DNA of 64,000 nt from Verrucomicrobiota bacterium (GCA_020831625.1 JAFIGD010000024.1:1-64000); one strand, 5' to 3'. Counted from the first letter of the stretch, positions 1 through 64,000 are shown. Program-made: numbers and translations. Notes: generated from the letters alone by a model not told the origin.

Positions 1-3000
1 TCCAGGGCTCCCGCACCGGTGGTGCCGAGGCCGCCGGCGCCGGTCAGGGTGACCGTTCCGGTTGCGGTGCGGATGTCATCATCGGTGTCCCCGCCGTCCA
101 GCCAGCGGCCGGTAAGGGTGATCAGCTCGATGTCGCCTGCGGCCGAAACCCCGTGCTGTTGGGCATCACTTTCGGGAACAAAGGTCACCGAATCGGGATC
201 AAATACCGGAATTGTGAAGCCGACAGTGGCCAGCGCGGTGCTTCCGGCGGCGGTCAGGTAAACCGAACCCTGGATACTCGCGGCCGACAGTTCATTGACA
301 TCGATGTTCACCGGGCTGAGCGCGCCGCCGATGTCCTGTTCGGACTGAATCCGGAGGGCTCCGCCCTGGAGGTCTCCACTCAGCAGCGCGGTGTCGGTCA
401 CCAGCGAAATGAGATTGCCGCTGACAAGAGCGAGGTCCAAATCCGCCGGACTGGCGATCCGGATTCGGTCGCCCAAAATTTGCGCGGTGGCATCCATGAC
501 CACACCGAGCTGGGCATAGAGGGAAACATCCTCCGCGGCGGCCACATCATTGTTCATCGTCAAGCTGCCGAACACACCCAGATAGACCGAACCGTTCGCG
601 GCGGTCAGACCCGCGAGAATGTACACAATGCCAATTGTGAGATCCTCCAGGGAAACAAGGAACAGGTCTCCGTTTTCGCTGCGGGCCGCGAGCGTATTGG
701 TCTGTACCTTCAGGGGGGACAGCGCGGTGCCTGCGGAACCGGAGAGATGAATCAACACATCCGGCGCGGTGAAGTCGGCGGTGCTGGTTTCGGTGAATAT
801 ACCGGCATCCGAGAAAAACACGATCTCGGTTGCGGCGGTGAGCGCGGTAAGGTCCGGAAGCGCATCCACCGAAACGGTGGCAAGGGTCACGTCGCTGCGG
901 CCGTGCAGGTAAACTCCGCCGGTGGCACTTTCCGCCGCCAGGCGGTTTACGTCAAGTTCCAGCAGATTGAAGAGCGAGCCCACAGAGCTTTCCGCTGTGA
1001 TCCGGGCGGTGGCCGCCTCCACGCGTCCTCCGGAAATCATTCCGGCGGAGCGGAGAGACACATCGCCTTCCGTGGCGATGACGCCGGAGAAAACAAGGTC
1101 ACCGGCAAGACTGCGCAGGGCGATCAACCCGGTACCGGAGAGAACGTCCCCTTCCAAATCAAACGCGTTGGCGACAATCCGCACCACGCCGCTTCCGCCG
1201 GCGTTCACGTCTCCCGTGGATTCCGCCGAGCTGACAGTGCCGCCGGCGGTAAGATTGACAGTTCCGTTGGTTCCGGTGCTGAGCCCGTTCTGCGGACCGT
1301 CGGTGCGGGTCGTGGTGGTGCCGGCCGCGGTCAGTTCGGTGACCGTGACGGCCACTTGACCGAAGGTGACATCGTTGAGTTCATTCAGGAACAATCCGGC
1401 CGTTTCAGAACGGGCGGAGAGGGTGCCGGCACTGATACTGATCCGGCGTGCGGACACGCCGATATTCCCCTGCGCCTGCAGACGCACCTGATTCGCGGTG
1501 ATGTTGCGGGTGGTGCCCAGCGTGTTTGTGATCAGACTGTTTTCGGACACCACCGAAACCGCCGCGGCGCTCAAATTGCCGAGGTTGACATCCGAGCCGG
1601 CGCGGACGCGGATATTGCCCGAAGTGTTGACCTGGGTTTGGCCGGCCATGCTCAATGTTCCCGCCGCCGCCAGAGAAAGGTCTCCTCCAGCGCTGCTTTG
1701 CACCGTCAGGACCGCCAAACTCAGGTTGCCCTGCGCATGCAGGGCGATATTGCCGGAGACGGAGGAAAGGCCGGCGTTCGCATTCGCGGTCAGATTGCCG
1801 GAGGCTTGCAGGAGAATGGAGCCGGTGCCGGCCGCGGAGACTGCGGTCTGATTGCTGTTGCCGTCGTTGAGGGTGATATTTCCGTTCAGGGTGATTAGAA
1901 CAATATTTCCGTCTGCGGTCGTCTGCAGGTCCGCCTGGGAGGCCGGATTCTGGGTTGTGCCGGCTCCGGAGGTTCCGACACGGATCACCGGGAACTGCAC
2001 CTGGGTCACAATGACTCCGGTGGCTTCGGTTACATACATTCCGTCCGCGGAACGGGCGCTCAGGGTTGCGGTCTGGGTCAGAATCGGATTTGCGGCGGAG
2101 CCGATGTGCTGTCCGGCCCGCAGGCTGAGTCCGGCGGCGCTGATCAGCGTCACGGGTTCGTTGCCCACCCGGATCAGCGATCCGTTCTCAGAACGGGCCA
2201 GGATGTTGCCGCCCGCGACGAATCCAAGGAGCACATCGCCGTCCGCGCGCAGATATACCGGGCCTCCGGGTGCGGAAATACCGCCCGCCGCCGGAAGAGT
2301 CAGGGCGCCGGTACCGGCGTCCACATACACACCACCACTGCCCGAAGTCGCAATCGACAAGGTTTCGGCGAGTGTGAGTCCGTTTCCGGCCAGAAGCGTG
2401 ATATGACCGCCGCTGGAGGTCACCGCGGAAAGAAGATTCATCCCGGCCGCGGCATCCAGCCGGATGTTTCCGGTCCCCTGCGCCAGCACGGGAGAATCCG
2501 CATCGACCGTCACACTGCCGGTTTCGCTGACCAGCACCAGATTCCCGTTCAGGCCGCCACTGAGACCGGCCTGAAGCGGATCGGCGACCGGAGCGGTGCC
2601 GGCGCTGAGATTGACTTCCTGAACCGCCAGCTCCACACCGCCGATGAGCACATCGCCGAAGTTGCTGACATAGACGCTGCCGGAGCGACTGTGCAGAGAA
2701 AGAACCGCCACATCCGCGGTGAGCAGTGCCGAAGGCGCGCCGATAGAGGTTTCGGATTCGATGCGCAGCCGGTCGGCGGTGATGTTCCGCAGTGAGCCGG
2801 CGCTGCGCAAGACACCGCCGGTATGGGAAATCAGACTGACCTCACTGGCGGAAACCACGCCCAGTGTAATGGTGGAGTGGGCTTCGATCCGCAGCGCGGA
2901 ATCCACGGCGGTCAGCACCGAGGCGGCGGCCAGGGTGACCGCGCCGTTATCGGAACGCAACAGGAGCGTTCCGGGGAGCGAAACTGTCGCGGAACCAGCG

Positions 3001-14579: not shown

Positions 14580-14615
14580 TGGAGAAATAGAGGCAACATT
14601 GAAAAAGATATATTT
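14580..14615 (-). other. Intergenic gap between the two giant genes
   Basis: These 36 bases (12 codons) separate the TGA of gene 1 from the ATG of gene 2 and are the only non-coding DNA in the window. They are markedly AT-rich compared with the flanking coding sequence, which supports a genuine gene boundary. No purine-rich Shine-Dalgarno sequence precedes the ATG, and I see no hairpin that would make a terminator. Read in frame, the gap has no further stop. In another frame an ATG at 14597-14599 opens a seven-codon ORF whose TGA overlaps the gene 2 ATG. Confidence 0.9.
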
Positions 14616-15540
14616 TCATCCGTTGCCTCCAATATACGTAAATGTGGGGATGTCCCCGGTGACGGGAGACGCGTTGAAATAGAGGGTGCCGAAGATCCGC
14701 AGGCCGCCGAGCGGGGAGCGCAGGGTGATCGACTCGGTGTAGGTGAACGAGGCCTGGGTGATCTGATGGCGTCCGTTGGCGCGGCCGATGGTGATGCCGG
14801 GCAGCGCGGAGTTCATGACACGGTTCCCGGCGCTGTCGAGGAAGAAGCTGGGCGCGGCGTTGTTGAAGCCGCTCATGAAGCGGTTGATTTCATCGGCGGT
14901 GAAGTGCAGACTGCCGGGAGTGCTGGGCGAATCGGTGGCCAGATCAATCCGGGTGGAAACCGACAGGGTCTGCAGGAGGAGCGTTCCGCGGAAGAGCGTT
15001 CCGGAGGCGTTGGTGAAGCGGCTGGCGATTTCAGCGTTCACGGACATCTGTTCACTGGTCAGGGCGATCCGGCCACCGCTGGCCTGAATTTTGGAATCAA
15101 TGCTGAGTTCGCCGACGAGATTGACAATGTGGATATTGCCGCCGGCGGCGGTGGTGACCCCGGCGGTTTCCGCGCCGATATCGCCGAAGCGGACATCACC
15201 GACGGTGGTGGCGTCCAGTCCGACCAGATACACGCCGGCGGCTCCGCCGGAATGGGCCTCAACCGTCTTGGCCCGGAAATACACGGGCATGAAGATGTCG
15301 CCGATTCCGCCCTTGGATTCCATGCGGAGCTGATCGACGTCAATCAGATTGATCCGTCCGAGGCCGTTGGAGACTTGGAAATTCTGGGTCAGGCGCAAGA
15401 GGGTGTCGGCCTGCAGCGAGAGTCCGTCAGCGCGGATAGAGGCGTTGAGGGTGATGGACCGGGCCTCCAGTGAGAGAACACTGCCGGTGAAGTCCTGATC
15501 CTCCTGGACCCGGATCACGCCGGTGCGTTCGCCGTTGGCG
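14616..15540 (-). repeat. Short FHA-like C-terminal block of gene 1
   Basis: The last about 307 residues of gene 1 switch to haemagglutinin-like repeats of the same kind as gene 2. SLEARSITLNASIRADGLSL and AKTVEAHSGGAAGVYLVGL match the landmark seen throughout gene 2. The final segment (TADEINRFMSGF, then ITIGRANGRHQITQASFTYT) is followed within about 40 residues by the stop, in what looks like the middle of a solenoid module. Compared with gene 2, where such blocks extend for thousands of residues, this block is very short, so truncation or gene fission is possible. Confidence 0.7.
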
Positions 15541-45500: not shown

Positions 45501-48500
45501 GATCGTCAAACGTCCCTGAGCCATGGCGGTTGTAATCGTCAGTCCGGCACGGATTTCCGCCAGCGTGAAACGGATTTTGAACAGACCAAAGTTCAGTGAA
45601 ATGCGCACCCCGCCCCACATTTCGCCGGAGAAGCCGTTATGGCTGAAGTTCAACTGCACGCCGCCGTACAGCACAAACGGTCCGAGCGGCACATTGAACG
45701 TCGCGGTTCCGGTCACACTGAACGTTCCGTCGGACACAAACCACCCCTGCACACCCACATGGATGATGTTAAAGAAATTAATGGAAAGCTGATTGATTTC
45801 GAACCTGAAGACCCCGCCCTCCACACTCAGCGTCATGTCCCCGACCCCCTTGAAGAGCAGCACCGACACCTCCGCGCGGACCCGCACAAAGAAGCTGCTT
45901 GCGGCGATCGACTGACCGACCAGGGTTTGGACCTGATTACTGGTGTTCACGGTCAATGTGAAAACGCCCTGCGCGTTAAAGGGTCCAAGTCCCATGCTGG
46001 CATTGATATCAATCAAAATCACCAAATGGCCCGTGGACGTGATGATCGCGCCCCCAGCGACCCGCAGACGTCCAAAGGGACCAAACCCGGCGGACGCCTC
46101 CAGTTCGAGCTGCAGGCCGTTTCCGTCCACCCGGATTTCAACCCGGCCTTCAATATCCACAAACTGCAGAATCGACAGCTTGCCGGCAACGAGCAGATAG
46201 AAGGAATTTGCCGCCAGCATTTCGGTTCCCTCACCGATGACCACGCCGGTTTCCGGATCCACCAGCAGGACGGGCACCGACCGGGAGCTTCCCGTGGTGT
46301 TAAGCTGCAGTTTGATCCGACCACCGATGCCGAAGAGGGAGTTCCCGATCAGCAAGGCATTGCCGGAACCCACTTCCAGACTGCCGTAGATGCCGTCATC
46401 CACAATCACCAGCACCCCGACCGCCATCAGCGGATTCACCAGCGGCATGATCAGCTCCGCATTCACGGACATCTCAAATTTATCCGGCGAAATCAGAATG
46501 CCCAGCGCGCCTTCCAAACGGAACGCCCCGTTAAACAGATCCAAGTAACCCTGAATCGCCAACTGGAACAGTGTTCCCGCCTCAACCGTGATCCCGCCGC
46601 GAACATAATCCTCATCGCCGGTGTTGATTTGAATCAGCGCGCTGCCCCCGATATGAATCGGGCCCAGCGCAATCGCAACCGACACTTCAATCCCCATGGC
46701 CAGGACAACCCCGTCCGGCGTGTCAAAGATCGAGAACGCGCCCTCCACGTCCAGCGTCGCAAGACCGATATCCAGCATCATCATCATGTAGGCATCAAAG
46801 CCCGTCTCATCCACCGTGAGATCCAGACGCCCCTGGAACGTCACCAGATTCTGGACCACCAGTTCACCCGCCACCGCGAACCGGAGCATGGTGGGTGCAA
46901 GGTCTGCGGTGCCGAACCCGAGGAAGAACCCGTCGTCATCCACAAGAATCGTCTGAACTTCCTGTTCCTGACTCGTGGTGTTCACCTGGAAAAGAAGGTT
47001 ACCGGAAATATAGATCGGGCCCAGACTCATCAACACCGACCCCGTTTCGGCGCCAATCTGCAGTGAACCATACAAACCGCCGTTGGGCCCGAGGATGATG
47101 CCCAGCGTTCCGGCCACCGGCAGCGGCTCCAGCAGCGGCATTCTCAACGTCATATTGAAATTCAGCACCGTCACCAGCGCGCTGTCCTGGAAACTCATCA
47201 GGAAGTTGAAGGAGCCCTCCATTTCCACAAGCTCCAGCAGCGTGATTTTTCCTTCACCCACCACTGAGAAATAGAAACTGACCGGATCCTGCATGCCCGG
47301 CGGAACATTGGTGATTTCCAGAATCGGCGGCAGACCGCGGCTCAACTGGAACTCTTCCGGAACCTCATATTCCATCACCTGGCCGGTGGTGTTGACAATC
47401 AATTCCAGGATGTCGACTTCAATGGACAGCCCGGGCAGAGTGTAGCTGTAATTGCTCAGGGTCGCCCGCGCCGCCAGACCGCGTGAATCGATGATCACCA
47501 GCGCCTGGGCGTCGGCGCTCAGGAACCCGGCGATGAAGGCCGACGCATCCACGAACAGGGTGAACGCTTCATCCGTGACTTTGATCTCAAACGCGCCGTC
47601 CAGCGTCGCGATGTCCAGCAGATTGAATTCCGCCTGACCCTGAACCCGGAGAAGGCGGGCGTTATACGTCAGAATAATCGGGTTGTTCACGTCGCCCGTA
47701 TCCAGGAAATAGCCGATCTCGAATCCTTCCTCCAGCTCTTCGCCGAATTCCCAAACCCCGCGGTCCACAGTCCCGTCTTCATTGATCCGATACGTGGAAC
47801 GGCTGAAATCCGCCACCGACAGATCAAAAGTCAGCGCCTGATTAATCTCCAGCGCCAAATCAAAAATCTGAGCCGTCAGGAAGTCCCCGGTTCCGACCAG
47901 CCCCGCGCTGTCCAGACTCGCGTCGGCGGCGAAGAAAATGCCGGGATTGGTAATGTCGAGGTCCATCATGAACACCACGCCGATTTTCAAGTTGTCAATC
48001 GCAACCCCGATCGCGCTCTCATTCCTCACAGTACCGTCAATCCGGTTGGTTTCCGGGTTCACGCCCCAATATCCGCCCACACCTGCGAAGGCATAGACAT
48101 TATTGATGCCCACCGCCAGCGAAGTCACCGTCCGCACATTGCCGCTGGTATCGATAATTTCCTCTGAGCCGCGCTTGGTGAAGGCCATCGATCCTCCGAT
48201 CTGAAGAAGCCCGAGAATGTCACCATGAATATAATCCACTTTGGCCTGAATAATTTCATCGTCGAAATCGATGTAGATCGAGCGACCCTCAAAGCCGGTA
48301 TCAATCACCAATCCGTTCGGACCAAAGACCGGCCCCACAAGCGCCTGCAACAGACTCAAATCCGAATCCGGGAACAACATTTCAACCAGTTCCAGAATTT
48401 CATCGAACCCGTCCAGACCCAGTCGGGTCTGTGTGAAATCAATATACGGCATCGGGAGCACCATTAAAGGCGGCGGCAGACCGGGGATAAATCCGGTATT

Positions 48501-51500
48501 GATATTCACCTCAACGTTTTCCACCCGGACATCAAGATAGTCATCCATCCCGACCAGTCCGCCGAACTCAATCTCCGCCTTCACCGCCAGATACGTCGGC
48601 AGGAAACTGTCCAGACCGGGAATGGCCAGCCCGCCTAACCCTGTCGGCCGAAGCAAAGCCATTCCAAACGTCGCACTGTCAATGGCAATCCCGACACGGT
48701 CATCCGATTTCCAATCGCCAATCCCCGCGAAACCACTGACGTCAATGGCCCCGATCGTCAGAATCTCCACATCGTGATAAATCCGGTCCAGCGGAATCGG
48801 CAGATCCAGCCCCTCACTGAGCGCTTTAATCACCCCGGTTTCGGCAGCCACAAACTGCTTCTGCTCACCAACGGAAATCATGAACGAACCTTCCAGGAAC
48901 AGGAAATCCGCCAAAGCAAATTCCGCCCAGGCCACACTGGCGCGTAAAAGGATCCGACCGTCAAAATCAATGAAAACAGATTCACCCGGGGTTGTCAGCT
49001 CCATGCCCTGAGGACCGAAACTGGACTGATAATCCATGTAGGCGAATAATTGCATCCCGAGATTGGCCTGTATCGGATCCAAAACCGGTAGTTCTCCCGT
49101 TAAAGGGTTGATTCCCGGCGGCGGCCCAATGTAAGGCGGCATAATATAGGTGTTCATTTCCACCACCACCCCTTGCAGATTCGCGTGCAGCAGATCGCCC
49201 ATGCCCACAAGCCCGGCTTCCTCAACCTCCAGTTTCAAACTCAGGTAACCGGTGGTCCACTTCACCAGACCAAAATTAACATTGCGGGCGAACATGCCGA
49301 AGGTGTCACCGGGGTCTCCCTCTCCAAAATACGGCGTCCCAAAACCAAGGAATGCGTCCACACCGCTGGCGGCAATGGAGAAATAACGCATAATCGGCAA
49401 TTTACCCGGAATGAGCCCGCCGCCAACAACAATGTCCAGCCCTGATACCGCCCCCATCGTGAAGGCGAAATCCCCGCTCAAATGCAACACATTCTGCACA
49501 CTCAGCAACGCGCCCCCGACATATATCGCAAACACGGGGCCGGCAGTCCCGGGGGTGTCAATCGTTACCGTTCCGTCACCGAAACTCAGACCGAAATCAA
49601 TATCCCCCAATTCAAATTGAATCCCGTAAGGAACCTCCAGCGGCTTGGCGGCGAAATCAATCGTCCGTCCAAGCAAATCCGCGGAGTTAATCACGACTTC
49701 GACAGAATCCACCTGCATCTCAAGGCCGGGAATCCCCACCAACCCGGCAAAATCACTGCGGGCCAGTCCGGTGACCCACACCCCTCCGGTTGTCGGACTG
49801 ATCAGAATCGCCGCCGCAATCTGGATGTTATCCACCTGCAGTCCCACATCCCCGATCCCGGCGAAAATATCGATGCCGCCAATCGCGAAACTGGCATACA
49901 CCACCTCTGTCAAGGATCCGTCACTGAGCACCAGCGTCTCGAATTCCATCCGAAGATCCAAATCCTGTTCAAACTGCACCAGATCAAATAAGTTGACTCC
50001 GAAACGGCCCAGGAATCCGAAAACACTGCCGAAATCCGGAAGTTCGGGATACACAATGCCGATATCCAGACCGGGCAGGTTCAATTTCGGAAGATTCAGG
50101 ATGAAATCCGTCAGCGACAGATTTGCCCAGTCAATGTCCAGGTCCGGGTAGGCCAGTCCCAGATCGGCAATGGTCACATCCGGCCAGAGATCCAAGCCGG
50201 TTGTCGGCAGGGTGAGCGTCACCCCGGGGAGATCGAGCGCGGCCAGCTCGGCAATGAAATCAGCGAGGGTCAGTGAGCTCCAATCCACCGTCACGTCCGG
50301 GAAAGCGTCACCCAGCGAACCGATCCCGAAGTCGGGAAGCCCCAGATCCAGTTCAAGATCCGCCATCGAAGGCGAAAGACCGAATTCCGGCTTGCCGAAG
50401 GTGATCGGGGAAAGCGCATAATTGATTCCCAGTCCGCTTGCGGCCAGCTGCAGGTAGGATAGCGCCAGGTCCGTGGCTTCCAGCTTCACGCCCGGCAGCC
50501 CCACAAATCCGAACATCCCCACATAGGCGTTCATAATCGTCCAGGTGTTGAGGGGATCCTCCAGATCCACATAAATACCCAGTCCCACGTTCAGATCCTC
50601 AACCACAAAGCCGATCCGATCAAGGGAACTGTTTCCGGGAAAGCCGAGGAAACCGTTTGCGCCCAGGGCCGCGAGTTCTATCGCGCCGACCTCAACCGTG
50701 GAGCCGTCTGTTAAGGTCAGCGTCCGGGTTTCGGTCACAAAGGAGAAGAAACCGCTGATCTCGAGAACCCCGAGGAGATTGACGTTGAGATTTCCTTCAA
50801 TTCCGAGCAGGTTGCCTTTCACATCAATGACCACTTCCGTGAAATCCCCTCCCAGATCAATGCTGCCGATCGCGGCGCCGAACCCGCGGCGCAGCCGGAC
50901 GGGACGCATGCTGTAGTCCGCAGTCACCCCGTCAAAACTCGGGGTGTTGATCACCAGGCGGACATCCTCGGCACTGATCTCAAACATATCGCCGCCCTGG
51001 AAGCCGACAAAGCTGGTTTCCGCAACCACGGTCAGCCAGGTCCGTCCGAAGCTGAGCGGATTGATATCGACCGCCAGAATCACACCCAGACTCGCGTCCT
51101 CCAGACCAAGTCCGACACCCTCGAAACCGGCAAAGAAGGAAATATCATCCAGCGCGAAGGTGAACATCCCCACTTCTGTGGAACTGCCGTCGCTCAAATC
51201 CACGGTGATAAAGGTCTGGATAATGTCGATGGAGATTTCCAGTTCAATCAGGCTGAAGGCCCGGAAGACAAAGGTGCCCGCCAGTTTGGCGATGGTTTGA
51301 TCGCTGCGCTGGAACTCAAACTCAAAGCCGTAATCCCCGATGGGCATCGGACGGCCGGTGTCTGCACTGAAGTCCACCACGGTTCCACCGGCGGCGGCGC
51401 GGTTCAGCGCGAGGACAATATTACTGCCGTAGATTTCAAGCTGCTCCAGCCCCATGAACCCGACCGCGCCGATCTCACCCTTGATTGCGGACCAAACCCG

Positions 51501-54500
51501 GGCCTGCTGTCCGGCGGCAGGTTCCAATTCCGTCATGTTGAGAATCAGGAAGCTCGCGTCCGTCATGCCGAACCCGATCGCGTTCTCTTCTCCGGGATTG
51601 AATCCGACAAAGAAGTTGGTGTTGGTGGCGCCCATCGCCATCACGTCGACCTCCACCTCTTCACCGGTATTCAGAATGACCGTCTCTGTCTTCTGCTCCA
51701 CCAGAATGTTGGTTTCCGCATGCAGGAAGTCAAACGCGTTGATCTTCACATACCCGAGGGCTCTCACATATCCAAACGAGACGCCGGGTATGGACATTTC
51801 CAGGGTGTTCGGGCTGCCGAATTTGGATCCTTTTTCCGCAGAAGCCACAAAATCCACCGTGGTGCCGTCAATCGGGAGCGGGATTGGGATCTGGTACACA
51901 GGCTCCTGCACAATGATAAACGCCGGAAGATTGATTTGAATATCCAGATTTTCCGCGCGCATTTCCAGCCCCGGAACCCCTTCCAGCTCAATCCGGCCCG
52001 CCCTGGCTTCCAGAGCCAGCCAATAACGGCGCAGTTCTTCAACAATCGCCTCGTCCTCCCGCATGAAGGCAAACGCGAAGCTCACATCCTCCATGACAAT
52101 GCGCGGACCGCCCTCAACACCCAGGAAGGCATTGAGATTTCCGGCGCTCAGGGTAAAGCCGTGAATGGTGACTTCCTTCAGAAAGGAGAACGGATCGTCT
52201 TCACTAATGCCACTCAGCAGGTCGGGGTTGTCCGGGTCCGGCAGGAAGGACCCGAAATCCGGAATCTGAATTTCACCGTTGATGATATTCAAAGGACTTG
52301 CATCGGACAACACCACATCCCGCTGAAGGATCGCCTCGAATCCGAAAGTTCCGGAAACCTGGAAGAAATTCGCCACCCGAATGCCGATGTTCAGTTCCGC
52401 ACCGATGAAGGTGCCCTTACCGCCTTCAATTGTCAGGAAGTAGGTGTCTTCTGTTCCGACTACATTGCCGAGGTCACTGATGGTTCGGGCATAATCCACA
52501 ACACTGCCGTCGCTGGCGTCCAAGTTAAATCCGATAAACACATCCTGAATATTCTGAACCTCAAACACCGTGGTCGGGATCCCGACAAAACCGATTTCAT
52601 CCGCTTCCGCCTGCGCCGAAATCCAGCTGCGGCCGTTACCGTCCAGTTCACGCACATACGCGAACGCGAACGCGATACCCTCGGCAATAAATCCGATGCG
52701 TTTGTCCGGATTCGGATCATTAATCCCCACAAACACATTGATATCCGAACCGGTGATGCTGATTGCCGAGACCTGGGTTGTCGTGGGCGTGCTCACACCC
52801 TGCCGCACCTGGACTTGCGTGTCGGTCATGGTGAACGCCACATTTCCTTCAATCGTGAGCACATCCAGGAAATTCCCCTTGAATCCAATGGCACGGAAGG
52901 ACACGGTGTTGGTGCCGATATTTTCGCTGAATGTATATTTCAGCCCCAGCACGTCCAGCTCATCGCCCAGGCTCACCGAACCGGTGGCACTGGAATACTG
53001 GATTTTCACCTCCTGGATTTCAAAACTGGCCAGCCCCTCAATCGCGGCTTCAAACGTCCCGTTGGTCATTTCGAAAACAATCTCATCCCCGCGGGCAAAG
53101 AAACCGAATTGGGCGTTGTTGTAGCGAACATAGGCCGGACCGAGTTCAAGATAGGCATTGATGTCTTTGCCCACCGCCGTGAGGGTTTCCTGGCCATCAA
53201 TTACGGTGCGGCTGAAGCCGAAGGTACCGTTCAGTCCGACGAATCCGGCAATATCAATCGCAATGTTCGCCCGCACCGCCAGCAGTTCGCCCTGCATGTC
53301 AAAGGTCATGAAATCCTCATCACCCGGACCCGTGCGGACGTCCATGGGCGCATGACCGAAGTCCACCGTGGTGTTGTCGTTCGCCGCCACATTGATCTCC
53401 ACCCGCATGCTGTTCACTTCCAGCGTGAAATCATCAATCCCCACAAACCCGGCGAACCCGACCTCCGCCTGGAGACCGACCCAGGTACGGCTTCCGCCTT
53501 TTTCGGAAAGCACCGCCAACCCAAATTCAGTATCGGACAAGCCGAACCCAATCCCGTTCACCCCGGCGAACGCGGTGATATTCGTGGCCCCAACCGTCAA
53601 CACATCCACATCGACGTCCACTTCACCGTCACCGGACAGCCGCACCGTGTCACTGCGGCTGACAAAAGCGAACGAGCCCTCCACCTCAAAGAAATCCAGC
53701 AGCGTCAGTTTCAACGAACCAACCACCTGAATCAACGCCCCGTTGTCCCCGTCCATATCCAGATCCACAAAGGTGGTCACCCCGGTCGAAATCCGGTAGT
53801 GGTTGTCCTCACCGGAGAAATCAATGACCGTGTCGTCACTGGCGGAGAGATTGACCTCCAGGCCGAAATCAAACACATCCAACGTCAACCCGGGAATGCC
53901 CACCACGGAAACCGCCTCAACCGATCCCTGCAGGGCCACCCAGGACCGCGATCCGGAAGCCTCGCTGAACAGTCCAACCCCGATATTGCCGTTGGTCATC
54001 CGCAGACCGATTTCATTCGACTGATCCTTGTTGAACCCTGCAAACGCGTTCACACTGCCGGCGCCAATGGTGAGCACATCCACATCCACTGTCTCACCGG
54101 TGTCCAGTGTGACCGTGTCCGAGCGGGTGCCAATGGCGAAGTTTCCTTCGATCTCAATAAAGTCGCCGATGCGCAGGAAGGCGCCGTCCACCGCCAACTC
54201 CAGTAAATCGTCCACAGCGGGCATGGTTCCGAAGGTGTGGGAAACCCCGCCGGCGGTGATGGTTCGACCCGTGTATTCGTTGCCGGTGAAGTTCACCCGG
54301 AAGACCACCAGATCCGCGCCCAATTCGAAAAGATTGCCTGGAATCGTGGTCACAAACGTTCCCTGAGCCTCCAGGGCGATATTGTTGTCCTCATCAATCA
54401 CCAACCCCAGCCCGCCGTTCACGAAGCCCGCTTCAAAATCACCCACAACAATACCGGCGGAAACCCCGGCGGCGGTCAGGATCATTTCATCGGTTTCACC

Positions 54501-57500
54501 GTTCACGCTGAATCCGAAATCACCCCGCAAATAAATGACATCCGCAATATTGACATCCAGACCTTTCACACTGACCGCGAAGTAATCCTCGACATCGGGA
54601 AGATCTTCAAAGCGGTACGAACGCGTGCCGATCACAAAATTCTCGCCCAACACATCGAGTCCGGACTGGTTGTATCCGAAGTACACCCGGTCCGCGGTCG
54701 CGCTGCCGAAGCCGCCGCCGTTCAGGAAGAAACCGCCAAAGCCTTCAATCGCCAGTGAATCATTGCGGTATACCAGACCCAGATTGCCATTGGTGATTCC
54801 GGCACCCACAGTGGAAGTTCCGATCGATGCGTTCACGTTGTTGGCGATGGCCACAAACTCTCCATCCTTCAGGCTGAAAGCGAAATCCCCTTCAATCGTG
54901 GCGATGTCCAGCAAGGTGACCGAGACCCCGTCCACAATAAATTCGAGGGTGTTCGGGTCAATTGCACTGGCAAACGTGTACGTCTCGACGCCGAAACCGA
55001 CAATACGTCCCTGGGTAATCGTGGTGGCGCTGTTGGTGTAGCGGACCGTCACGGATTCAGCCGTGGCGGTGCCCAGAGGCGCGAGCGACAGTTCAAAACT
55101 CCCGCCGGTGGTTTCCAGCGCCAGTTCGCCCCCGCCGAAGACCACCCCGAAGTTCACTCCGTTCACCCGTGCGTATATATCGTCATTTACATCCAGCGAA
55201 ACGGAAATGTCTGTTCCCGCCACTTCAATCCGGTCATTTTTCGAAACGAAGGTCAGATTTCCGGAGGCGGCCACAAAGTCCTCGATCTTCAGCAGCAGGT
55301 TGGTTCCGGCAAACGCGATGAATTCGTCGGTGGTTCCGTAATCGATCAGACCGATCGAACCGCCGAAGTTAACCGACGCCTGTCCGGTGGTGTTCACCCA
55401 GGCGCTGATGGTTCCCGAAAGCGTAAGGCCGGAAACACCCAGAACCGCAGCATTCCCGGTGGCGTACAGCGCAAACCGGCTGTCCTCCGAAGACGTGTCA
55501 ATCCACATGCCCAGCTGAATCCCGGTCGCAACCACGCCCACCGCGTTGGGATTCACATTCCCGTTGGCAAGCTTGTAGGGCCCGTTGCCCAGGAACGCAT
55601 AGGCATCGGTCACCGCCACTTCAAAGCGGTCCGGGGCCCGGGTCAGGGTGAAATCACCGCCCAGCCCGACAACATCGAGGAGATTCAACTCCACGCCGAC
55701 AGCCGTAAACTGAATAAAGGGCGTGTCCCCGTCGCCGACTTCCGTGTTACTGAAACTCACCGTCAGCGTTTCACCGGCGATGGTGAACGTGTCAGAGAAA
55801 GAGGTCGTTCCCTCGTGATAACGCAGGGTCATTGTGGCGGTCACATCCAGGCCATCCACACCCACAAAGGTGACAGTACCGGTAATAAAGCCGGATTTCA
55901 CGCCGTCGTTGTCGATGAAGAAGCCCTGACCGTTGGTCAACTGAACCCCGATACGGTTGTCGCTGATGTTGTCGCCCACAAACGCCTCGACCTGAGTGGC
56001 GATAATGACCGTCGAGCCGCCGGAGGAGTTGGACGTGGAGAAACTGAACGTTCCGGAAATTTCCAGGCCGGGGAACGAAAGACTGATCGCGGCTTCAATC
56101 CAGACGGTCGAGTCATTCGGACCCAGCGCCGGAAGATTCACCACACCGAAACTGCCTTCAACCTCAATAGCCAATCCGGTGTTGTTGAAGAAAATTTCCG
56201 CCTGCGTGCCCGCATCAATTCCCGGCATATTGACCGAGGCCGTGAATTCAAGGGTGCCGGCCAGGCCCGCATCCGCAATCACCACAAAAATCCCCTGCGC
56301 GTCCTCGATGGAAATCGCGGAACCTCCAGTGCCCTCTCCACTGAACGCGGCGATATTCACATCCTCAAAGTACACAATCATCACTTCGTCGTCCGCCGTG
56401 GCCTGACGCTGGAAGCCGATTTTGCCGTTCATGGAAACGCCCAGGAAGTCGACGGTGACATTTTCAGCCTCCAGCAGGAGGAACTCGCCCCTTGGCACCT
56501 GCAGATTCACGATATCGCCGCCCACCGTGAAGTTTTCATTCACAGACCGGTCCATGGTGTTGAAGATCGCGGTGAACCCGGTGGCGCTGAGCGTGATTCC
56601 GGGAATACCGTCCAACACCGTCAGATCCCCGGTCAATCCGCCGGCAATCCCGTCTTCCGTGATATACAACCCGCCAAACCCGTCAGAGAAGCTCAGCAGA
56701 TCCGTTCCGTCCACCGCCACGGTAAAGGCGATATCCGTTCCGGCAATCTTAACGTCTCCCGATTCGGCCTCAAACACCAGCGTGTAGTTCCCGGACATCA
56801 CGAAGAACTCGGCAATATCCAGACTGCCGCTAAACGCCGCTTCGACATTTCCATCCCCGTCCAGCCGGAAAGACGCGGTACCCTGCAAAACAATCACATC
56901 CACAATCGAGGCTTCAAAGTTCTCAACCTCAAACACAATTTCCCCGTCCGCAATCGCCTCAACAAATTCAAATTCGAGATCGCCGACCGTCAGCTTGCGC
57001 TCGGCCGCCACGGACATGCCGACCGCGAAACGCAACTGCACGTTGTTCGCCTCCACACTCGCCAGCGGCGCGAGCGCCGCCGCAAAGACACCGTTCTTCA
57101 TTTCAAACGCCAGTCCGCCCGCGTTGGTGACGATCAGACCGAAGGATTGACCGGACGCCGAAACCGAAACCGGTCCGACCGACACCGAGGCGGTCACATC
57201 CTCGGCCACCGCAATCAACTCATCCTCCAGCAGTTGAATCCCCAGGCTGCCGCTCAACGTGCCGAAGCCGTTAATCTCGCCCTGGAAGCCGCGCACCAGC
57301 AGCATTTGCGTTCCTGCCGCAATCTCCCCGCTGAATTCAAATTCCGCATCCAGCACCTTCAACTCCGTCTCTTCCGCAACCGTCGTCACCTCGTTGGTGT
57401 ACTGCACGAACACCTCCGTGGCCGACACCGACGCCATCCCCTCGATGCTTCCGCTCAGGGCCGCGTCGCGGATCTCAAACGCCAGTTCCGTTCCGTTGGT

Positions 57501-60500
57501 GAAGAACCCGAAGGTTCCGTCGCTCAAACTGAAGCTCGCCACATCCTCCACGCCCAGGCTGGCGCTCACGTTCTCTCCGATGCCCGTGAACATCCGGTTG
57601 TCAGATGGTCCGCTGATTCCGAACGCGAAGGTCCCGCTCACCGCTGCGAATCCGAAGAAGTCGATGTTCAACTCCCCGCGGATCGAGAACACTTCGCCGA
57701 GTTCCCCGTCCATGTCCATGTCCAGCGTCAGGCTCGCACCCGGCGCGGTGGTGATTTCAAATCCGTCTCCGCTGAAGTCCACCACCGTGTCATCGGTCGC
57801 GGCGATGTTCACCTCCACCTTCAGCGTGGAAATCTCCATGGTCACATCGTCGATCCCCACAAAACCCGCGATGGAGATCTCGCCCTTCAGCGCCGCCCAC
57901 ACCCGGTCACCGTCTTTTTCGCTGAAGATCGCCAGACCGAACTCGATGTCCCGCATCTCAAAGCCAATCGCGTCGTCCGTGCCTCCGTCAATTCCCACAA
58001 ACACTTCCAGTCCGGCCCCGCCCACGGTCAGCGCCCGGGTTTCCACCTCGGCCTCGTCACTCAGCGTCACCGTGGCGTTCCGCAGTTCAAAGGCCATTCC
58101 GCCTTCCACCCGGAAGAAGCCGAACAGATCCAGCGTCATGTTGCCGGTCACCCGCACATACGCCCCGGAGGCTCCGTTGAGATCCAGGGTCATACTGCTT
58201 TCCGCTCCGGTCAACACCTCCAGCGGCTCCACCCCGAAGTCCACCACCAGATTGCTGTCCGGCTCTCCGACGATGTCCGGACGGTCTTTGCTTTCGCCCA
58301 CATGCACGGTTTCCAGTGACACCGAGACCGGGGTGGTCATCGTGGTGATTTCCAGCAGATCCAAATCGCGTTCGCCGAGGCTGCCGAGGAAGCGGATGTC
58401 CCACAGGCCCGTGAGAATCCGGGTCACACTGAATTCCGCGCCCGCCAGATCCGCGAACGCGGCTTCAAGCGCGGCTTTCACGTCGGCCGCCGTGGCCCGG
58501 AAGTTGATCAGCTCCGTGTCATAATCCTCTCCGTCCACATTCAGACTCAGCATGAAGCCGCCGGAGGCTTTGGTGCTCACCGACACCCGCTGGATTTCAT
58601 TGCGGCCCGCGCGGGTCACCGTCACCGGCTCGTCACGGGTTTCGCCGCGCTGTTCCACAATCAGCGTCGCGCGGACCGGCGTCACCGTGGCTGCGATCTG
58701 CAGGCGGGCCAGATCGATGCCGGCCAGATCTCCGCCGAACACCACCCGCCAGACACCGCTTTCGGTCGAACTCACCGTGACACTGCCGCCGGTGGCGGCC
58801 AGCGCGGTGTTCAGGGCGCTTTCCAGCGCCGCCGCATCGGTGTCGAAACTAAGGGCGTCGGTCGTGTAGGTTTCGCCGGCGTGGGTCAGACTCAACGTAA
58901 AGGTTCCTGTCGCTTCACTGGTTACCCGGACTTCCTGTTCAGCGGCGATGCTCTCCACGGTCTCAACCGTGGTCTCGCTCTGGCCGTTCACCTGCGTGGT
59001 CACCGTCAGGGTCAAGCCGCTCTGAGAAGCGACTGTGATCTGCGGCAGATCCTGATAGGACAGTTCTCCGATAAAGGTCACCAAGTAGCGCAGGGTCCCG
59101 GCGGGCGCGGTTGAATCAACGGCAACCTCCACGTTCCCCTTCTTAATGGTGGTCAGCCCTTCCAGCGCCAGCTGCATGTAGGAGGCGTTGAGCACGGGCT
59201 GAATGGAATTGAAGTCCAGCACGCCGGTGGTCAGTCCGTTGAATTCCAGCGAATACTGTCTGCCGGTCTGCCCGGTGTAGTTCGTAAAGGTCAGCACCTG
59301 CACTTCGCGCACAAAGCTGCCGGTCGTGGTGGTGCCGGTCACTTCCTCACCGCCGCGAACCAGCGTCCGCACCGAGGCCTGCACCCCGCCCTGCTCCACC
59401 CGCACTGTCAAATCACTGAAATCGTTTCCGGCAAGGTCTTCGATAAATTCAATCGTGAATCCGTTTTCACGGTTGCCGCTCACACTCACGTTTCCCGTTC
59501 CCACCAGCGCGAAGCCCGCCAGTGCCAACCCGATCAGATCCCGCAAATCATCGTCACTGGTTCCCGCAGTCACATCCACTGACCGCTCTTCGCCCCGCAG
59601 TCCGAACACCAGCCGCCCCTGTTCGATGTCCGTTTCCAGTTTCACCACCGTGTTTTCCACCACCGCTTCCTGCTCTTCATCCTCCACAGCCGGACGCCCC
59701 GCCTGACGCTCCAGCACCGCTGTGCTCACCTCCGGTGACGTGGTGCTGACGGTCAAGCCGCTGAGGTCGGTCCCCAGCAGATCATTCACAAAATTCAGCA
59801 GGAAGCCTTCCTCCCGGGTTCCGGTGACCTCCACATTGCCGCTTCCCACGCCCGGCAGGCTTTCCAGCGCCGCCACCAGCTTGGCGCGCAGGCCCGTACT
59901 CGTGTCCGCGGCGGTCACTTCCACGTCGGCGGTTTCGCCGTCGAGGTCAAACACCAGGGTGCCTTCCGCCAAATCGGTTTCCAGACGCAGCACCGTCGCG
60001 GTCAGTTCCGGATCCTGTTCGACCGCGTCCCCTTCGTCGCTGATGTTGAGGTTGAGTTCCACCGTCAGCGTGTCCGCCTCCACGGTCAATCCGTCGAGTC
60101 CAACGAATCCGACCGAGCCGACCTCGCTCTTGAGGGCCAGCCACTTGCGGGCCGGGTTGGCGCTGTCGGTCAGAACCGCCAACGCGAAGCTCGCTTCGCT
60201 CAAATTAAATCCGAGGGCCTCGGGACTGCCGCCGTTGAGTCCGGCGAAGGCGCTGATGTTGTTGGCACCCACGGTGATCAAATCCACGTCCACCGAACTG
60301 CCGTCGGAGAGCCGCACCGTGTCGCTGCGGCTGACGAAGGCGAAGTCGCCGCTGATGCGGAAGAAGTCCGCCACTTCCAGGGTCAGGGTGCCGACGGCCT
60401 GGAGCAGTTCGCCGTCTTCGGCGGACATGTCGAAGGTCAAGGTGTCCGAAACGCTGACGGGAACCTCGTAGGCGGTTTCAGAGAAATCGATCAGACTGCC

Positions 60501-63500
60501 GTCGGCGGCGGCGAGGTTGGCCTCCAGGCCGAACTGCGTCACCGAGAGGGTGAGCTGGTCAATCCCCACAAAGGCGGCTTCGCCGACATTCGCCTTCAGC
60601 GCGGTCCAGCTCCGGCCCGCGCCGCCCTGTTCGCTGAAGAGGGCCAGGGCCGCATTGACGTCGGTCAGGGCGATGCCCACCGCGTTGTCGGTGCCGCCGT
60701 TGTAGCCCGCGAAGCCGTTCGCGTTGGCGGCCCCGAAGGTCAGCACGTCCACCTCCACATCGCCTTCGTCTTTCACCGACACCGTGTCGGACACCGAGCG
60801 CACCGCGAAGTTTCCGCTCACCTGCAGGAACCCGGCCAGGTCAAGAACCCCGCCATCGACGAAGAGTTCGAAAAGATCATCCGCTTCCGCCAGGGCAAGG
60901 AATTCATACGACAGTTCACCCGCCGTGAGCGTCTCACCGGTCATCAGATTTCCGGTCTCATTGATGCGCAGCGTGACCGAATCCGCTCCGAGCGTGATTT
61001 CAGCAGGCAACACCGCCGACAGGGTTCCGGAGGCCTCCAGCGCGATCTTGCCGTCTTCGTCAATCCGCAGGCCCAAACTTGCGTTCCGAACCCCGGCGGT
61101 AAACGCTCCAACCACAAAGCCGGCCGCAACATCCTGCGCAATCACATCAATCACGTCTTGATCCCCGTCCACCGAAATCGCGAAGTCACCGCTCAGGAAG
61201 AGAACGTCCGCGAAGGAGGCCTCGAGGCCGATCACATTCACCACCATCAAATTATTTGCTTCCGGCATATCGCGGAAGGTGTATTCCAGCGAACCGATCT
61301 GAATCGTGGTATCCGTCCATTCCACACCCGTTTCATTGACCCGCAAAATCGCCAGAGACGCGGAGGCCTCAGCAAACCCGCCGCCATTCAGGAACAATCC
61401 GCCCTGTGCCTCCAGCGCCACGCCGTCTTCGGTCAGAATCAGTCCAAAGGTGCCGTCGGTCACGCCCGCGCCGAAATCGCCGAGGGTCAGGGAAGCCGAA
61501 ACGTCGCGGGCGGCCGCCACGAGATGGGTGCCGTCAAAGACAAACCCGACATCGCCGGAGAAGGAGGCCACCCCGCCGAGTTCAAACAGAAGCGAACTGC
61601 CGCGGAAGGCGAAAATGTCATCGGAGGTTCCGTAATCCACCAGGCCGTAATCACCGAATTCGATCAAATCACTGCCGGTGGTGTTCACCCAGATTTCAAC
61701 ATCCCCGCTCATGACCAGACCGGGCACGCCGTTCAGCGAAACACTGCCTTCGGCGTGAAGCGCATAGCTGCTTTCTTCGTCCGTTCCGAACAGGGCCAGC
61801 GCAAACGCGCCGTTTTCCAACACCAGTTCAACCGGCGCCACGCCCAAAGAGGCTTCAATATTCTCGCCGGTCACCAGAATCGAACGGATATCCTCTTCAA
61901 CCAGCACAAAAGCGAAGTCGCCAACAATCTGCGTGAAATCCGCAATCCCCAGAGTCAGGCCGATGGCCTCCATGGCGAAATACGGATCAGTAACCCCGAA
62001 ATCGATCGAACCGTATTCACCGAAATCCACAACCTGTTCGCCGGTGGTGTTCGCCCAGACCTCCAGCGCGCCCGAGAGGGTCAGTCCGGGAATGCCCGAC
62101 AGGGCCGCGTCACCGGAGGCGTGAAGCGCCATACCGCCGTCTCCGGCCTCAAAGGCGAGGAAAGCGAACTCGGCATCGATGACCGAAACCGAAACTGAAC
62201 CGACCGTCAATGAGGCCGCGACATCATTTCCGAAAAAGAGAATCGTCGCATTGTCATCTTCATCAAAGGTCTGACTCAGTTCGAACGCGCCCGACACCGT
62301 GACAAATCCGGTTAAGTTCAGTTCCCCGTCAAACGAAGCCTCAATATTTCCGTCCGCGTCCAACTGGAAGGAGGCGTTTCCGGAAAGCGAGGCCACACCC
62401 AGGAAGTCGGCGGTCAGGTCCTCCACTTCGAACGACAGATCCCCGTCATTAATTTCAGACTCAAATTCGTACTCCAGCGAACCGATTTTCAGTTCACGTC
62501 CCGCCGCGACCGACGCGCCGACCGCGAAACGAAGATTCACATTCTGCGCCTCAAGATTCGCAAACGGAGCCAGCGAAGCGGCAAAACCGACATTCCGCAT
62601 TTCAAACACAACCCCGCCGGAATTGTTGACGATCAGACCGAACTGATCCCCGCTCGCAGAAATGGACGCGGAACCCGCCACCAGCGACGCGGTCATGTCC
62701 TCCCCGATCGCCACCAGTTCATCCTCCAGCAACTGAATCCCCAGGCTGCCGCTCAATGTGCCGAAGCCGTTAATCTCGCCCTGGAAGCCGCGCACCAGCA
62801 GCATTTGCGTTCCTGCCGCAATCTCCCCGCTGAATTCAAATTCCGCATCCAGCACCTTCAACTCCGTCTCTTCCGCAACCGTCGTCACCTCGTTGGTGTA
62901 CTGCACGAACACCTCCGTGGCCGACACCGACGCCATCCCCTCGATGCTTCCGCTCAGGGCCGCGTCGCGGATCTCAAACGCCAGTTCCGTTCCGTTGGTG
63001 AAGAACCCGAAGGTTCCGTCGCTCAAACTGAAGCTCGCCACATCCTCCACGCCCAGGCTGGCGCTCACGTTCTCTCCGATGCCCGTGAACATCCGGTTGT
63101 CAGATGGTCCGCTGATTCCGAACGCGAAGGTCCCGCTCACCGCTGCGAATCCGAAGAAGTCGATGTTCAACTCCCCGCGGATCGAGAACACTTCGCCGAG
63201 TTCCCCGTCCATGTCCATGTCCAGCGTCAGGCTCGCACCCGGCGCGGTGGTGATTTCAAATCCGTCTCCGCTGAAGTCCACCACCGTGTCATCGGTCGCG
63301 GCGATGTTCACCTCCACCTTCAGCGTGGAAATCTCCATGGTCACATCGTCGATCCCCACAAAACCCGCGATGGAGATCTCGCCCTTCAGCGCCGCCCACA
63401 CCCGGTCACCGTCTTTTTCGCTGAAGATCGCCAGACCGAACTCGATGTCCCGCATCTCAAAGCCAATCGCGTCGTCCGTGCCTCCGTCAATTCCCACAAA

Positions 63501-64000: not shown

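What the first reader, a model, noticed from the sequence alone, without database searches (positions are those of the whole stretch)
1..64000. One reading frame spans the entire 64 kb with a single stop; gene 1 exceeds 16,460 residues
The minus-strand frame is open from both edges and broken only by TGA at 14616-14618. Gene 1 alone has 16,460 visible codons and no start in view. This places it among the very largest bacterial genes, comparable with giant proteins reported from Chlorobi, PVC bacteria and Omnitrophota. The domain grammar holds to the end, so the frame is maintained by selection.
Basis: partly seen in the sequence, partly recalled or inferred. Interest (0 to 1): 0.8.

Follow-up and report, generated by a model that had tools for sequence, protein, structure and literature searches.

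The report
Giant 18,000-residue protein and its exporter
This stretch of a Kiritimatiellota bacterium's DNA carries one intact gene for an 18,174-residue protein plus part of a second giant, and comparison across bacteria suggests that proteins of this kind leave the cell through a dedicated, apparently undescribed export machine.

Summary
In detail: the minus-strand frame is open across the window with one TGA at 14616-14618. The contig continues 5.4 kb and contains the start: ATG at 69140, followed by an LEPR-XLL motif. Gene 1 is therefore 18,174 aa as assembled, with no cysteine. Gene 2 begins 36 bp downstream with its own LEPR-XLL and runs off the contig.

The pair is real. Orthologous pairs occur in other genomes, including a complete single-contig chromosome (17,102 + 5,573 aa), and dN/dS is about 0.1. 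Caveat: the short-read assembly holds a 3,596-bp exact internal repeat, so the length could be wrong by multiples of 1,833 aa.

Beyond the finding: LEPR-XLL genes co-occur with, and often adjoin, a conserved cassette of TolC, HlyD, GAF-HlyD, a PqqD/M50-protease/HlyD fusion and a truncated SecA. In 388 Verrucomicrobiota genomes, 21 of 23 with the strong cassette marker carry LEPR-XLL (p about 1e-26). The same linkage appears on alphaproteobacterial plasmids. In one relative the gene 1 ortholog lies directly downstream of the cassette. I infer that LEPR-XLL is an export leader, the cassette the exporter, and gene 1 an extracellular RTX surface protein. Transport itself is untested. 'Among the very largest' is overstated: proteins up to 85,800 aa are reported.

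The parts
14616..64000 (-). Gene 1: 18,174-aa LEPR-XLL giant protein. The true start is ATG at contig position 69140, outside the window (L005:9140); the stop is TGA 14616-14618.
3..14579 (-). Gene 2: second LEPR-XLL giant protein, at least 4,859 aa, cut by the contig end. It starts 36 bp after gene 1's stop, in the same frame.
   Evidence: complete orthologs of 5,445 and 5,573 aa
14463..14513 (-). LEPR-XLL motif of gene 2 (proposed export leader)
   Evidence: NF012209 over cut-off. Gene 1's own motif lies at contig 69057-69101, outside the window.
47610..64000 (-). About 33 copies of a roughly 150-aa all-beta repeat (gene 1 aa 461-7177; the region continues to contig position 67760). No Pfam family.
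   Evidence: AlphaFold pLDDT 90.4, pTM 0.82; no PDB match with E<=0.001
57259..60854 (-). Copy 2 of a 3,596-bp exact direct repeat (gene 1 aa 2763-3961)
62758..64000 (-). Copy 1 of the exact repeat (gene 1 aa 930-2128), continuing to contig position 66353
38000..45140 (-). Main RTX calcium-binding nonapeptide region (gene 1 about aa 8000-10400)
   Evidence: PF00353 1.6e-175, 28 stretches; GGxGxD density
28047..28436 (-). PA14 domain (aa 13569-13698)
   Evidence: PF07691 2.3e-22
27654..27905 (-). Best of 4 proprotein-convertase P domains (aa 13746-13829)
   Evidence: PF01483 3.6e-43
25632..25694 (-). Best of 4 FG-GAP repeats (aa 14483-14503)
   Evidence: PF01839 9.2e-22
17214..17342 (-). Leucine-rich repeat (aa 17267-17309)
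   Evidence: PF12799 5.3e-8
16710..17177 (-). LamG / concanavalin-like lectin domain (aa 17322-17477)
   Evidence: PF13385 1.5e-18
14619..16202 (-). Conserved C-terminal region, 50-52% identical in the two complete orthologs
1..55 (.). 55-bp exact overlap with the right end of contig C88 (sign of a k=55 de Bruijn assembly)

Best explanation
Gene 1 (18,174 aa as assembled) and gene 2 are an intact, probably co-transcribed pair of giant extracellular proteins of a Kiritimatiellota bacterium. Both begin with a short LEPR-XLL leader in place of a classical Sec signal peptide. Gene 1 is built from about 33 beta-sheet repeats, then RTX calcium-binding repeats, then binding and adhesion modules (PA14, P domains, FG-GAP, LRR, LamG); it most likely acts as a calcium-stabilised surface adhesin or coat. 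Proposed export route: the LEPR-XLL leader is recognised by the PqqD-like domain of a membrane protein that also carries an M50 intramembrane protease and an HlyD adaptor. A truncated SecA-type ATPase (nucleotide-binding and preprotein-binding parts, without the C-terminal wing and scaffold) supplies the drive. Two further HlyD-type adaptors and a TolC channel carry the unfolded, cysteine-free chain across both membranes. Shown: the reading frames, their conservation under purifying selection, the cassette's gene order, its co-occurrence and adjacency with LEPR-XLL genes, and the domains. Inferred: leader recognition, cleavage by the M50 domain, SecA-like drive, the TolC route, and the adhesin or coat role.
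For: Gene reality: frame; orthologous pairs in G001 and in CP120722.1, a complete chromosome; the gene 1-gene 2 junction also in JAGYLC010000070.1 and JAGYJE010000012.1; dN/dS 0.09 for gene 1, 0.16 for gene 2. Domains. Cassette: TolC, HlyD, GAF-HlyD, SecA DEAD/PPXD/P-loop; HExxH and DG motif invariant; PqqD-like N-terminus, 17 of 20 members; alignment to SecA 15-608 only; separate full-length housekeeping SecA. Linkage: 146 genomes of the class, p = 8e-14; 388 genomes of the phylum, 21 of 23, p = 1e-26; gene order and adjacency; gene 1 ortholog about 90 bp downstream of the SecA-like gene in G009; same linkage on alphaproteobacterial plasmids. No cysteine.
Against: No protein, transcript or secretion data. 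In the window's own genome the cassette sits next to a third LEPR-XLL gene (contig C88), not visibly next to gene 1, whose contig ends 281 bp upstream of the start. In G008 and G158 the cassette is tens of kb or more from the giant genes. Thalassospira has the giant gene and the adaptors but no SecA-like gene in the 20 kb read. G297 has a 7,111-aa LEPR-XLL frame without the strong cassette marker; G019 and G204 have the marker without an LEPR-XLL hit. A canonical ABC-type type I system elsewhere in the genome was not looked for. The PqqD match is below Pfam's cut-off in the window genome's own protein (19.7 against 23.4 bits).
Confidence: 0.72

Rival explanations
1. The giant proteins are real RTX proteins exported by an ordinary type I (ABC transporter, HlyB-like) system through a C-terminal signal. 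The SecA-like/M50 cassette serves something else and merely travels with them.
For: RTX repeats are typical type I cargo; TolC and HlyD are type I parts; lack of cysteine fits type I cargo.
Against: The cassette has no ABC ATPase in the synteny read and keeps a SecA-like gene in most loci. Association with LEPR-XLL genes holds across two phyla and is often adjacent. Gene 2 starts with the same leader but has no RTX match in Pfam.
Confidence: 0.13
2. The exact gene length is an assembly product: the 3,596-bp exact repeat is one collapsed copy that the assembler walked twice, or more than two copies were reduced to two. The real protein could be about 16,341 aa, or 20,007 aa or more.
For: The 55-bp exact end overlap marks a k=55 de Bruijn assembly, which cannot span 3.6 kb of identity by reads. 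The repeat is the only long one in the contig. Congener G001 has the unit once.
Against: The flanks and the linker between the copies differ (50-60% identity), and a congener (G003) contig contains the repeat-tail-to-linker-to-repeat-head junction. This changes only the length; the frame stays open and orthologs of 17,102 and 20,459 aa bracket it.
Confidence: 0.25
3. The locus is degenerate or an artefact (frame open by GC bias, no product).
For: GC 60%, third-position GC 74%; antisense frames are also long.
Against: Only one frame is open for 54.5 kb; dN/dS 0.09-0.16; intact orthologs in independent assemblies, one of them a closed chromosome.
Confidence: 0.02
4. Genes 1 and 2 are one gene and the TGA at 14616 is a sequencing error or is read through.
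For: Both are in the same frame with only 36 bp between them.
Against: Two other genomes have the same stop-then-LEPR-XLL arrangement with 71-73 bp between, and two more contigs confirm the junction. Gene 2 carries its own N-terminal leader.
Confidence: 0.02

Closest known systems
LEPR-XLL giant proteins (NCBIfam NF012209, 'LEPR-8K')
   Same: N-terminal LEPR-XLL motif at the start of a very long repetitive protein; RTX and serralysin-like repeats. An about 8,000-aa Vibrio example with N-terminal LEPR-XLL and C-terminal RTX is described in PMC10868602.
   Different: About twice as long; about 33 copies of a roughly 150-aa beta repeat with no Pfam family; a two-gene tandem. The link to an export cassette was not found described in the papers searched.
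Giant open reading frames of Omnitrophota (PMC10066038; up to 85,800 aa cited in PMC12057145)
   Same: PVC superphylum; adhesion-type modules such as LamG in some of them.
   Different: Those of Velamenicoccia have transmembrane helices and few annotated domains; here there is an LEPR-XLL start and RTX repeats. The present protein is shorter than the largest of them.
Type I secretion (HlyB-HlyD-TolC)
   Same: HlyD adaptors and a TolC outer membrane channel; RTX cargo.
   Different: No ABC ATPase in the cassette; a truncated SecA and a PqqD/M50/HlyD fusion instead; the proposed cargo mark is N-terminal.
Accessory Sec (SecA2) systems
   Same: A second SecA-type ATPase beside the housekeeping SecA, with large surface-protein cargo (general knowledge).
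   Different: This SecA stops after the second nucleotide-binding domain (about residue 608 of B. subtilis SecA), is about 680 aa long, and sits with HlyD/TolC genes.
RiPP peptide systems with a PqqD/RRE domain and M50-type protease (daptide, epipeptide)
   Same: The M50-HlyD protein matches the daptide metalloprotease model (2e-46, under its cut-off) and has a PqqD-like N-terminus, which in RiPP systems binds leader peptides.
   Different: The proposed substrate is a giant protein, and an HlyD domain is fused on.

Membership tests
LEPR-XLL domain proteins (NF012209) | N-terminal motif scoring over the curated 17-bit cut-off | tested here: met
   21.9 and 17.8 bits for genes 1 and 2; 27.4 and 23.7 bits in the genome search
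LEPR-XLL domain proteins (NF012209) | Motif lies at the start of a very long protein | tested here: met
   Motif near residues 14-28 of 18,174 aa
RTX proteins | GGxGxDxxx calcium-binding nonapeptide repeats | tested here: met
   PF00353 1.6e-175, 28 stretches
RTX proteins / type I secretion cargo | C-terminal uncleaved secretion signal and a dedicated ABC exporter | not tested
   No ABC exporter in the cassettes read; the whole genome was not searched for one
Type I secretion system (for the cassette) | ABC ATPase with HlyD and TolC in one locus | tested here: not met
   TolC and HlyD present; SecA-like ATPase and PqqD/M50/HlyD instead of an ABC ATPase
SecA family | DEAD motor, preprotein cross-linking domain, second nucleotide-binding domain, Walker A | tested here: met
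   PF07517, PF01043, PF21090; GEGKT invariant in 10 genomes
SecA family (full translocase) | Scaffold and wing domain and C-terminal part | tested here: not met
   Model match stops at 617 of 787; alignment stops at B. subtilis residue 608; housekeeping SecA present separately
M50 metalloprotease | HExxH and downstream NPxxxxDG in a multi-helix membrane protein | tested here: met
   H209 E210 H213 and D311 G312 invariant in 10 sequences; 7 hydrophobic segments
PqqD / RiPP recognition element | PqqD fold at the N-terminus | tested here: inconclusive
   17 of 20 members match PF05402 (best 1.5e-7), the window genome's own at 0.0011 and below the cut-off; PDB 3g2b at E 0.0041
Record-size giant bacterial proteins | Among the largest known | tested here: not met
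   39,678 and 85,800 aa reported (PMC10066038, PMC12057145); ortholog G001 20,459 aa

The most novel reading that the evidence does not exclude
A previously undescribed protein secretion system of Gram-negative bacteria, found here in Verrucomicrobiota and Alphaproteobacteria: a truncated SecA motor joined to a PqqD/M50/HlyD fusion, two adaptors and TolC, which recognises the N-terminal LEPR-XLL leader and exports proteins of roughly 4,000 to 20,000 residues. It would join three machineries known separately: Sec motor, RiPP leader recognition and type I conduit.
Probability: 0.55. Interest if true: 0.88.

Novelty: new variant of a known kind. Interest (0 to 1): 0.72.

Why it matters
How bacteria move proteins of 10,000 to 20,000 or more residues through two membranes is an open question, and for the giant genes of PVC bacteria the delivery route is mostly unknown. 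The conserved LEPR-XLL/cassette linkage gives a specific machine and a specific leader to test in culturable strains, including alphaproteobacteria. It also offers a way to annotate giant secreted proteins from a 15-residue start motif plus a neighbouring gene.

Tried and rejected
Naming relatives from the conserved C-terminal region gave four true orthologs, the rest mostly RTX-repeat hits in unrelated bacteria. AlphaFold of the C-terminal region was poor (mean pLDDT 54.6, three sequences) and was not used. Foldseek of the N-terminal repeat model gave only outer-membrane barrels with E no better than 1.1e-3 and TM about 0.2, read as shared long antiparallel strands and not as a barrel assignment. 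A 48-aa LEPR-XLL query on plasmids found nothing (probably too short for tblastn); the plasmid linkage was found from the M50-HlyD protein instead. Paper searches for SecA with HlyD, TolC, M50 or giant proteins found no description of such a system; the library is open-access only, so this is weak evidence. One gene split by a sequencing error at TGA 14616 was rejected because the stop and second leader are conserved in other genomes. A frame kept open only by GC bias was rejected on dN/dS and orthologs. Long plus-strand ORFs were treated as antisense shadows of the biased codon use. The third LEPR-XLL gene on C88 was considered as the other part of gene 2 because the contig ends overlap; both frames have their own N-terminal leaders and share only 55 bp at their inner ends, so they are two genes that meet at one short repeat in the assembly graph.

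Full report
OBSERVATION. The minus-strand frame described is there. One search lists an ORF open from the right edge (63998) to TGA 14616-14618, 16,460 codons, and a second one from ATG 14579 to the left edge, 4,859 codons. Both are in the same frame, so the 64 kb carry one stop in that frame. Over gene 1 the other two minus frames hold 750 and 727 stops, and the expected chance of no stop in 18,174 codons is about 10^-264.

EXTENSION. The window is bases 1-64000 of contig C29 (69,421 bp) of a 4.89-Mb, 111-contig genome, 96% complete. The remaining 5.4 kb contain the gene start: ATG at 69140, preceded by in-frame stops from 69188 on. The complete gene 1 is 18,174 aa as assembled and begins MNFSKRQSQPQFDLEALEPRIMLSGDG, an LEPR-XLL motif over the curated cut-off. 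Gene 2 starts 36 bp after the gene 1 stop with its own LEPR-XLL motif and runs off the contig.

ASSEMBLY CAVEAT. The left contig end shares exactly 55 bp with the right end of contig C88, the mark of a k=55 short-read de Bruijn assembly (inference from how such assemblers work). Inside gene 1 lies a 3,596-bp direct repeat without a single difference, 57259-60854 against 62758-66353, offset 5,499 bp, flanked by sequence only 50-60% alike. Short reads cannot span this; the assembler must have unrolled a loop (inference). The copies may be less than identical in reality, and the number of units is uncertain, each unit being 1,833 aa. Congener G001 has the unit once. A contig of congener G003 carries repeat-tail, linker and repeat-head in order, which speaks for a real duplication.

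IS IT A GENE. Yes. Full-length orthologous pairs were read from two other genomes: G001 (contig JAFIGC010000004.1), 20,459 and 5,445 aa; and G008 (CP120722.1, Kiritimatiellota bacterium B12222, complete chromosome in one contig), 17,102 and 5,573 aa. Two further named contigs show the same gene 1-gene 2 junction. Gene 1 aligns with G001 over aa 7166-13009 at 63% and 13843-18171 at 42%. Against G003 dS is 1.0 and dN 0.09 over 1,076 codons; gene 2 against G002 gives 1.03 and 0.165 over 2,997 codons.

WHAT IT ENCODES. Gene 1 contains about 33 copies of a roughly 150-aa repeat between aa 461 and 7177 without any Pfam match. AlphaFold gives a confident all-beta model for two repeats (pLDDT 90.4, pTM 0.82) with no solved-structure match at E<=0.001. 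Then follow RTX nonapeptide repeats, a PA14 domain, four P domains, FG-GAP repeats, LRR and LamG, and a conserved C-terminal region. Gene 2 has no Pfam match; its sequence looks like a long beta-helical repeat protein (reading of the sequence only). Neither protein, nor the complete orthologs, contains a cysteine, and lysine is about 1%. These traits fit an extracellular calcium-binding structural or adhesive protein; that role is inferred.

THE EXPORT CASSETTE. Contig C88 of the same genome carries a third LEPR-XLL giant gene (>6,472 aa) preceded by TolC, HlyD, GAF-HlyD, an M50-HlyD protein, a SecA-like ATPase, a histidine kinase and a response regulator (the last two named from their sequences). 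In relative G009 the same five export genes lie directly upstream of the gene 1 ortholog itself, the SecA-like gene ending about 90 bp before its start. The five genes keep the same order in nearly all relatives of the class read and in a rearranged but compact form in distant Verrucomicrobiota. The SecA-like protein keeps the Walker motif, DEAD motor and preprotein-binding domain but ends near residue 608 of B. subtilis SecA; a full-length housekeeping SecA is present elsewhere in all five genomes checked. The M50-HlyD protein has invariant HExxH and DG motifs, about seven hydrophobic segments, an HlyD-like periplasmic part and an N-terminal domain that matches PqqD in 17 of 20 sequences, with PqqD 3g2b as best solved relative at E 0.0041. 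PqqD-like domains bind leader peptides in RiPP systems (established knowledge).

LINKAGE STATISTICS. In 146 genomes of the class, LEPR-XLL and M50-HlyD (E<=1e-40) occur together in 11, LEPR-XLL alone in 1, M50-HlyD alone in 2, neither in 132; Fisher p = 8e-14. In 388 genomes of the phylum, 23 have the strong form of the M50-HlyD protein (at least about 460 bits) and 21 of these have LEPR-XLL over the cut-off; p = 1e-26, and about 1e-20 without the class itself, using an approximate count of 300 genomes for the rest. Of the seven LEPR-XLL genomes without the strong marker, six have only short frames (138-636 aa) and are probably chance motif hits; G297 is a true exception. The bit-score threshold was chosen after seeing a gap in the scores (465 against 338 bits between genomes), so the p value is descriptive, and shared ancestry makes genomes non-independent. 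Cassette and LEPR-XLL gene lie within about 15 kb of each other in G340, G176, G240, G172, G207, G348, G355, G353, G190, G311, G231, G338 (measured from the gene's end), G009 and the window's own genome.

OTHER PHYLUM. M50-HlyD homologs of 27-35% identity on alphaproteobacterial plasmids sit beside giant genes: Pseudosulfitobacter (38.8 kb gene, annotated LEPR-XLL), Pontibrevibacter (31.8 kb, LEPR-XLL), Thalassospira (12.1 kb, LEPR-XLL), Methylosinus (26.5 kb) and Mesorhizobium (31.6 kb); the last two are annotated otherwise but begin with LEPRVLL and LEPRLLL motifs. A sixth, Alisedimentitalea (24.4 kb gene), shows no motif at its annotated start. The SecA-like gene is there in all but Thalassospira.

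MECHANISM. Best model: N-terminal leader read by the PqqD-like domain of the M50-HlyD protein, SecA-like motor, HlyD adaptors and TolC conduit, extracellular folding with calcium. The N-termini of the LEPR-XLL proteins have lower hydrophobic peaks (12-residue mean 1.0-2.0) than Sec signal peptides of three controls (2.2-2.5), a weak indication that they are not ordinary Sec cargo. Whether the M50 domain cuts the leader is a guess.

COMPARISON WITH THE KNOWN. LEPR-XLL appears in two papers of the library searched, one mentioning an about 8,000-aa Vibrio protein with RTX C-terminus. Giant genes of planctomycetes (PMC5177795, biggest 36,239 bp) and Omnitrophota (PMC10066038) are known; the present gene at 54.5 kb is larger than the former and smaller than the largest of the latter. 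I found no account of the SecA-like/M50/HlyD/TolC cassette or of its tie to LEPR-XLL. The library lacks preprints and most subscription journals, so absence there is not proof.

VERDICT. Observation confirmed and completed. The gene is a large, real member of the known LEPR-XLL giant-protein kind, not a record. The new and testable part is its likely export machine.

Noticed in passing
window 57259-60854 and 62758 onward (to contig 66353): 3,596-bp exact direct repeat inside gene 1 with 50-60% identical flanks: recent gene conversion or duplication, or near-identical copies merged by the assembler.
   Followed up: partly
window 1-55 and L033 right end (G000:C88:34639-34693): Exact 55-bp overlap of two contig ends inside two different LEPR-XLL genes; marks the assembly type and shows that gene 2 and the C88 gene share a short identical stretch.
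   Followed up: yes
L032:15276-20000 continuing in L033: Third LEPR-XLL giant gene of the genome (>6,472 aa, 3 Cys), directly behind the cassette and a histidine kinase/LytTR-type regulator pair; a matching pair with a giant gene exists in G002 (L038).
   Followed up: partly
genes 1 and 2 of the window and of L022-L031: No cysteine in 18,174, 20,459 and 17,102 aa, nor in the three gene 2 proteins; other LEPR-XLL frames have 0-6.
   Followed up: yes
gene 1 aa 461-7177 (window 47610 onward): About 33 copies of a roughly 150-aa all-beta repeat with a confident predicted model and no Pfam or PDB relative: possibly a new fold.
   Followed up: partly
L154 (Azospirillum argentinense plasmid) and the weaker M50-HlyD hits: A more distant M50-HlyD group sits with TolC, two HlyD genes and DUF4347 / Ig-like large proteins but no SecA-like gene in the stretch read: perhaps a sister system with another leader.
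   Followed up: no
L147, L149, L150, L152, L153: A small DUF3467 gene stands between the giant gene and the export genes in alphaproteobacteria; possible extra component.
   Followed up: no
L111 (G019:C17) and L146 (G204:C80): Cassettes (partial in G204: no TolC or SecA-like hit in the stretch read) in genomes without an LEPR-XLL hit over the cut-off; the cargo may have a diverged leader or be missing from the assembly.
   Followed up: no
L005:9289-9340: A stretch of about 50 bp upstream of gene 1 matches a dozen other places in the genome at 74-88% identity: a dispersed repeat.
   Followed up: no
window plus strand, e.g. 15645-22058: Antisense frames up to 2,137 aa, with one plus frame having only 58 stops over 54.5 kb; a by-product of codon bias that would mislead ORF-based annotation.
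   Followed up: partly
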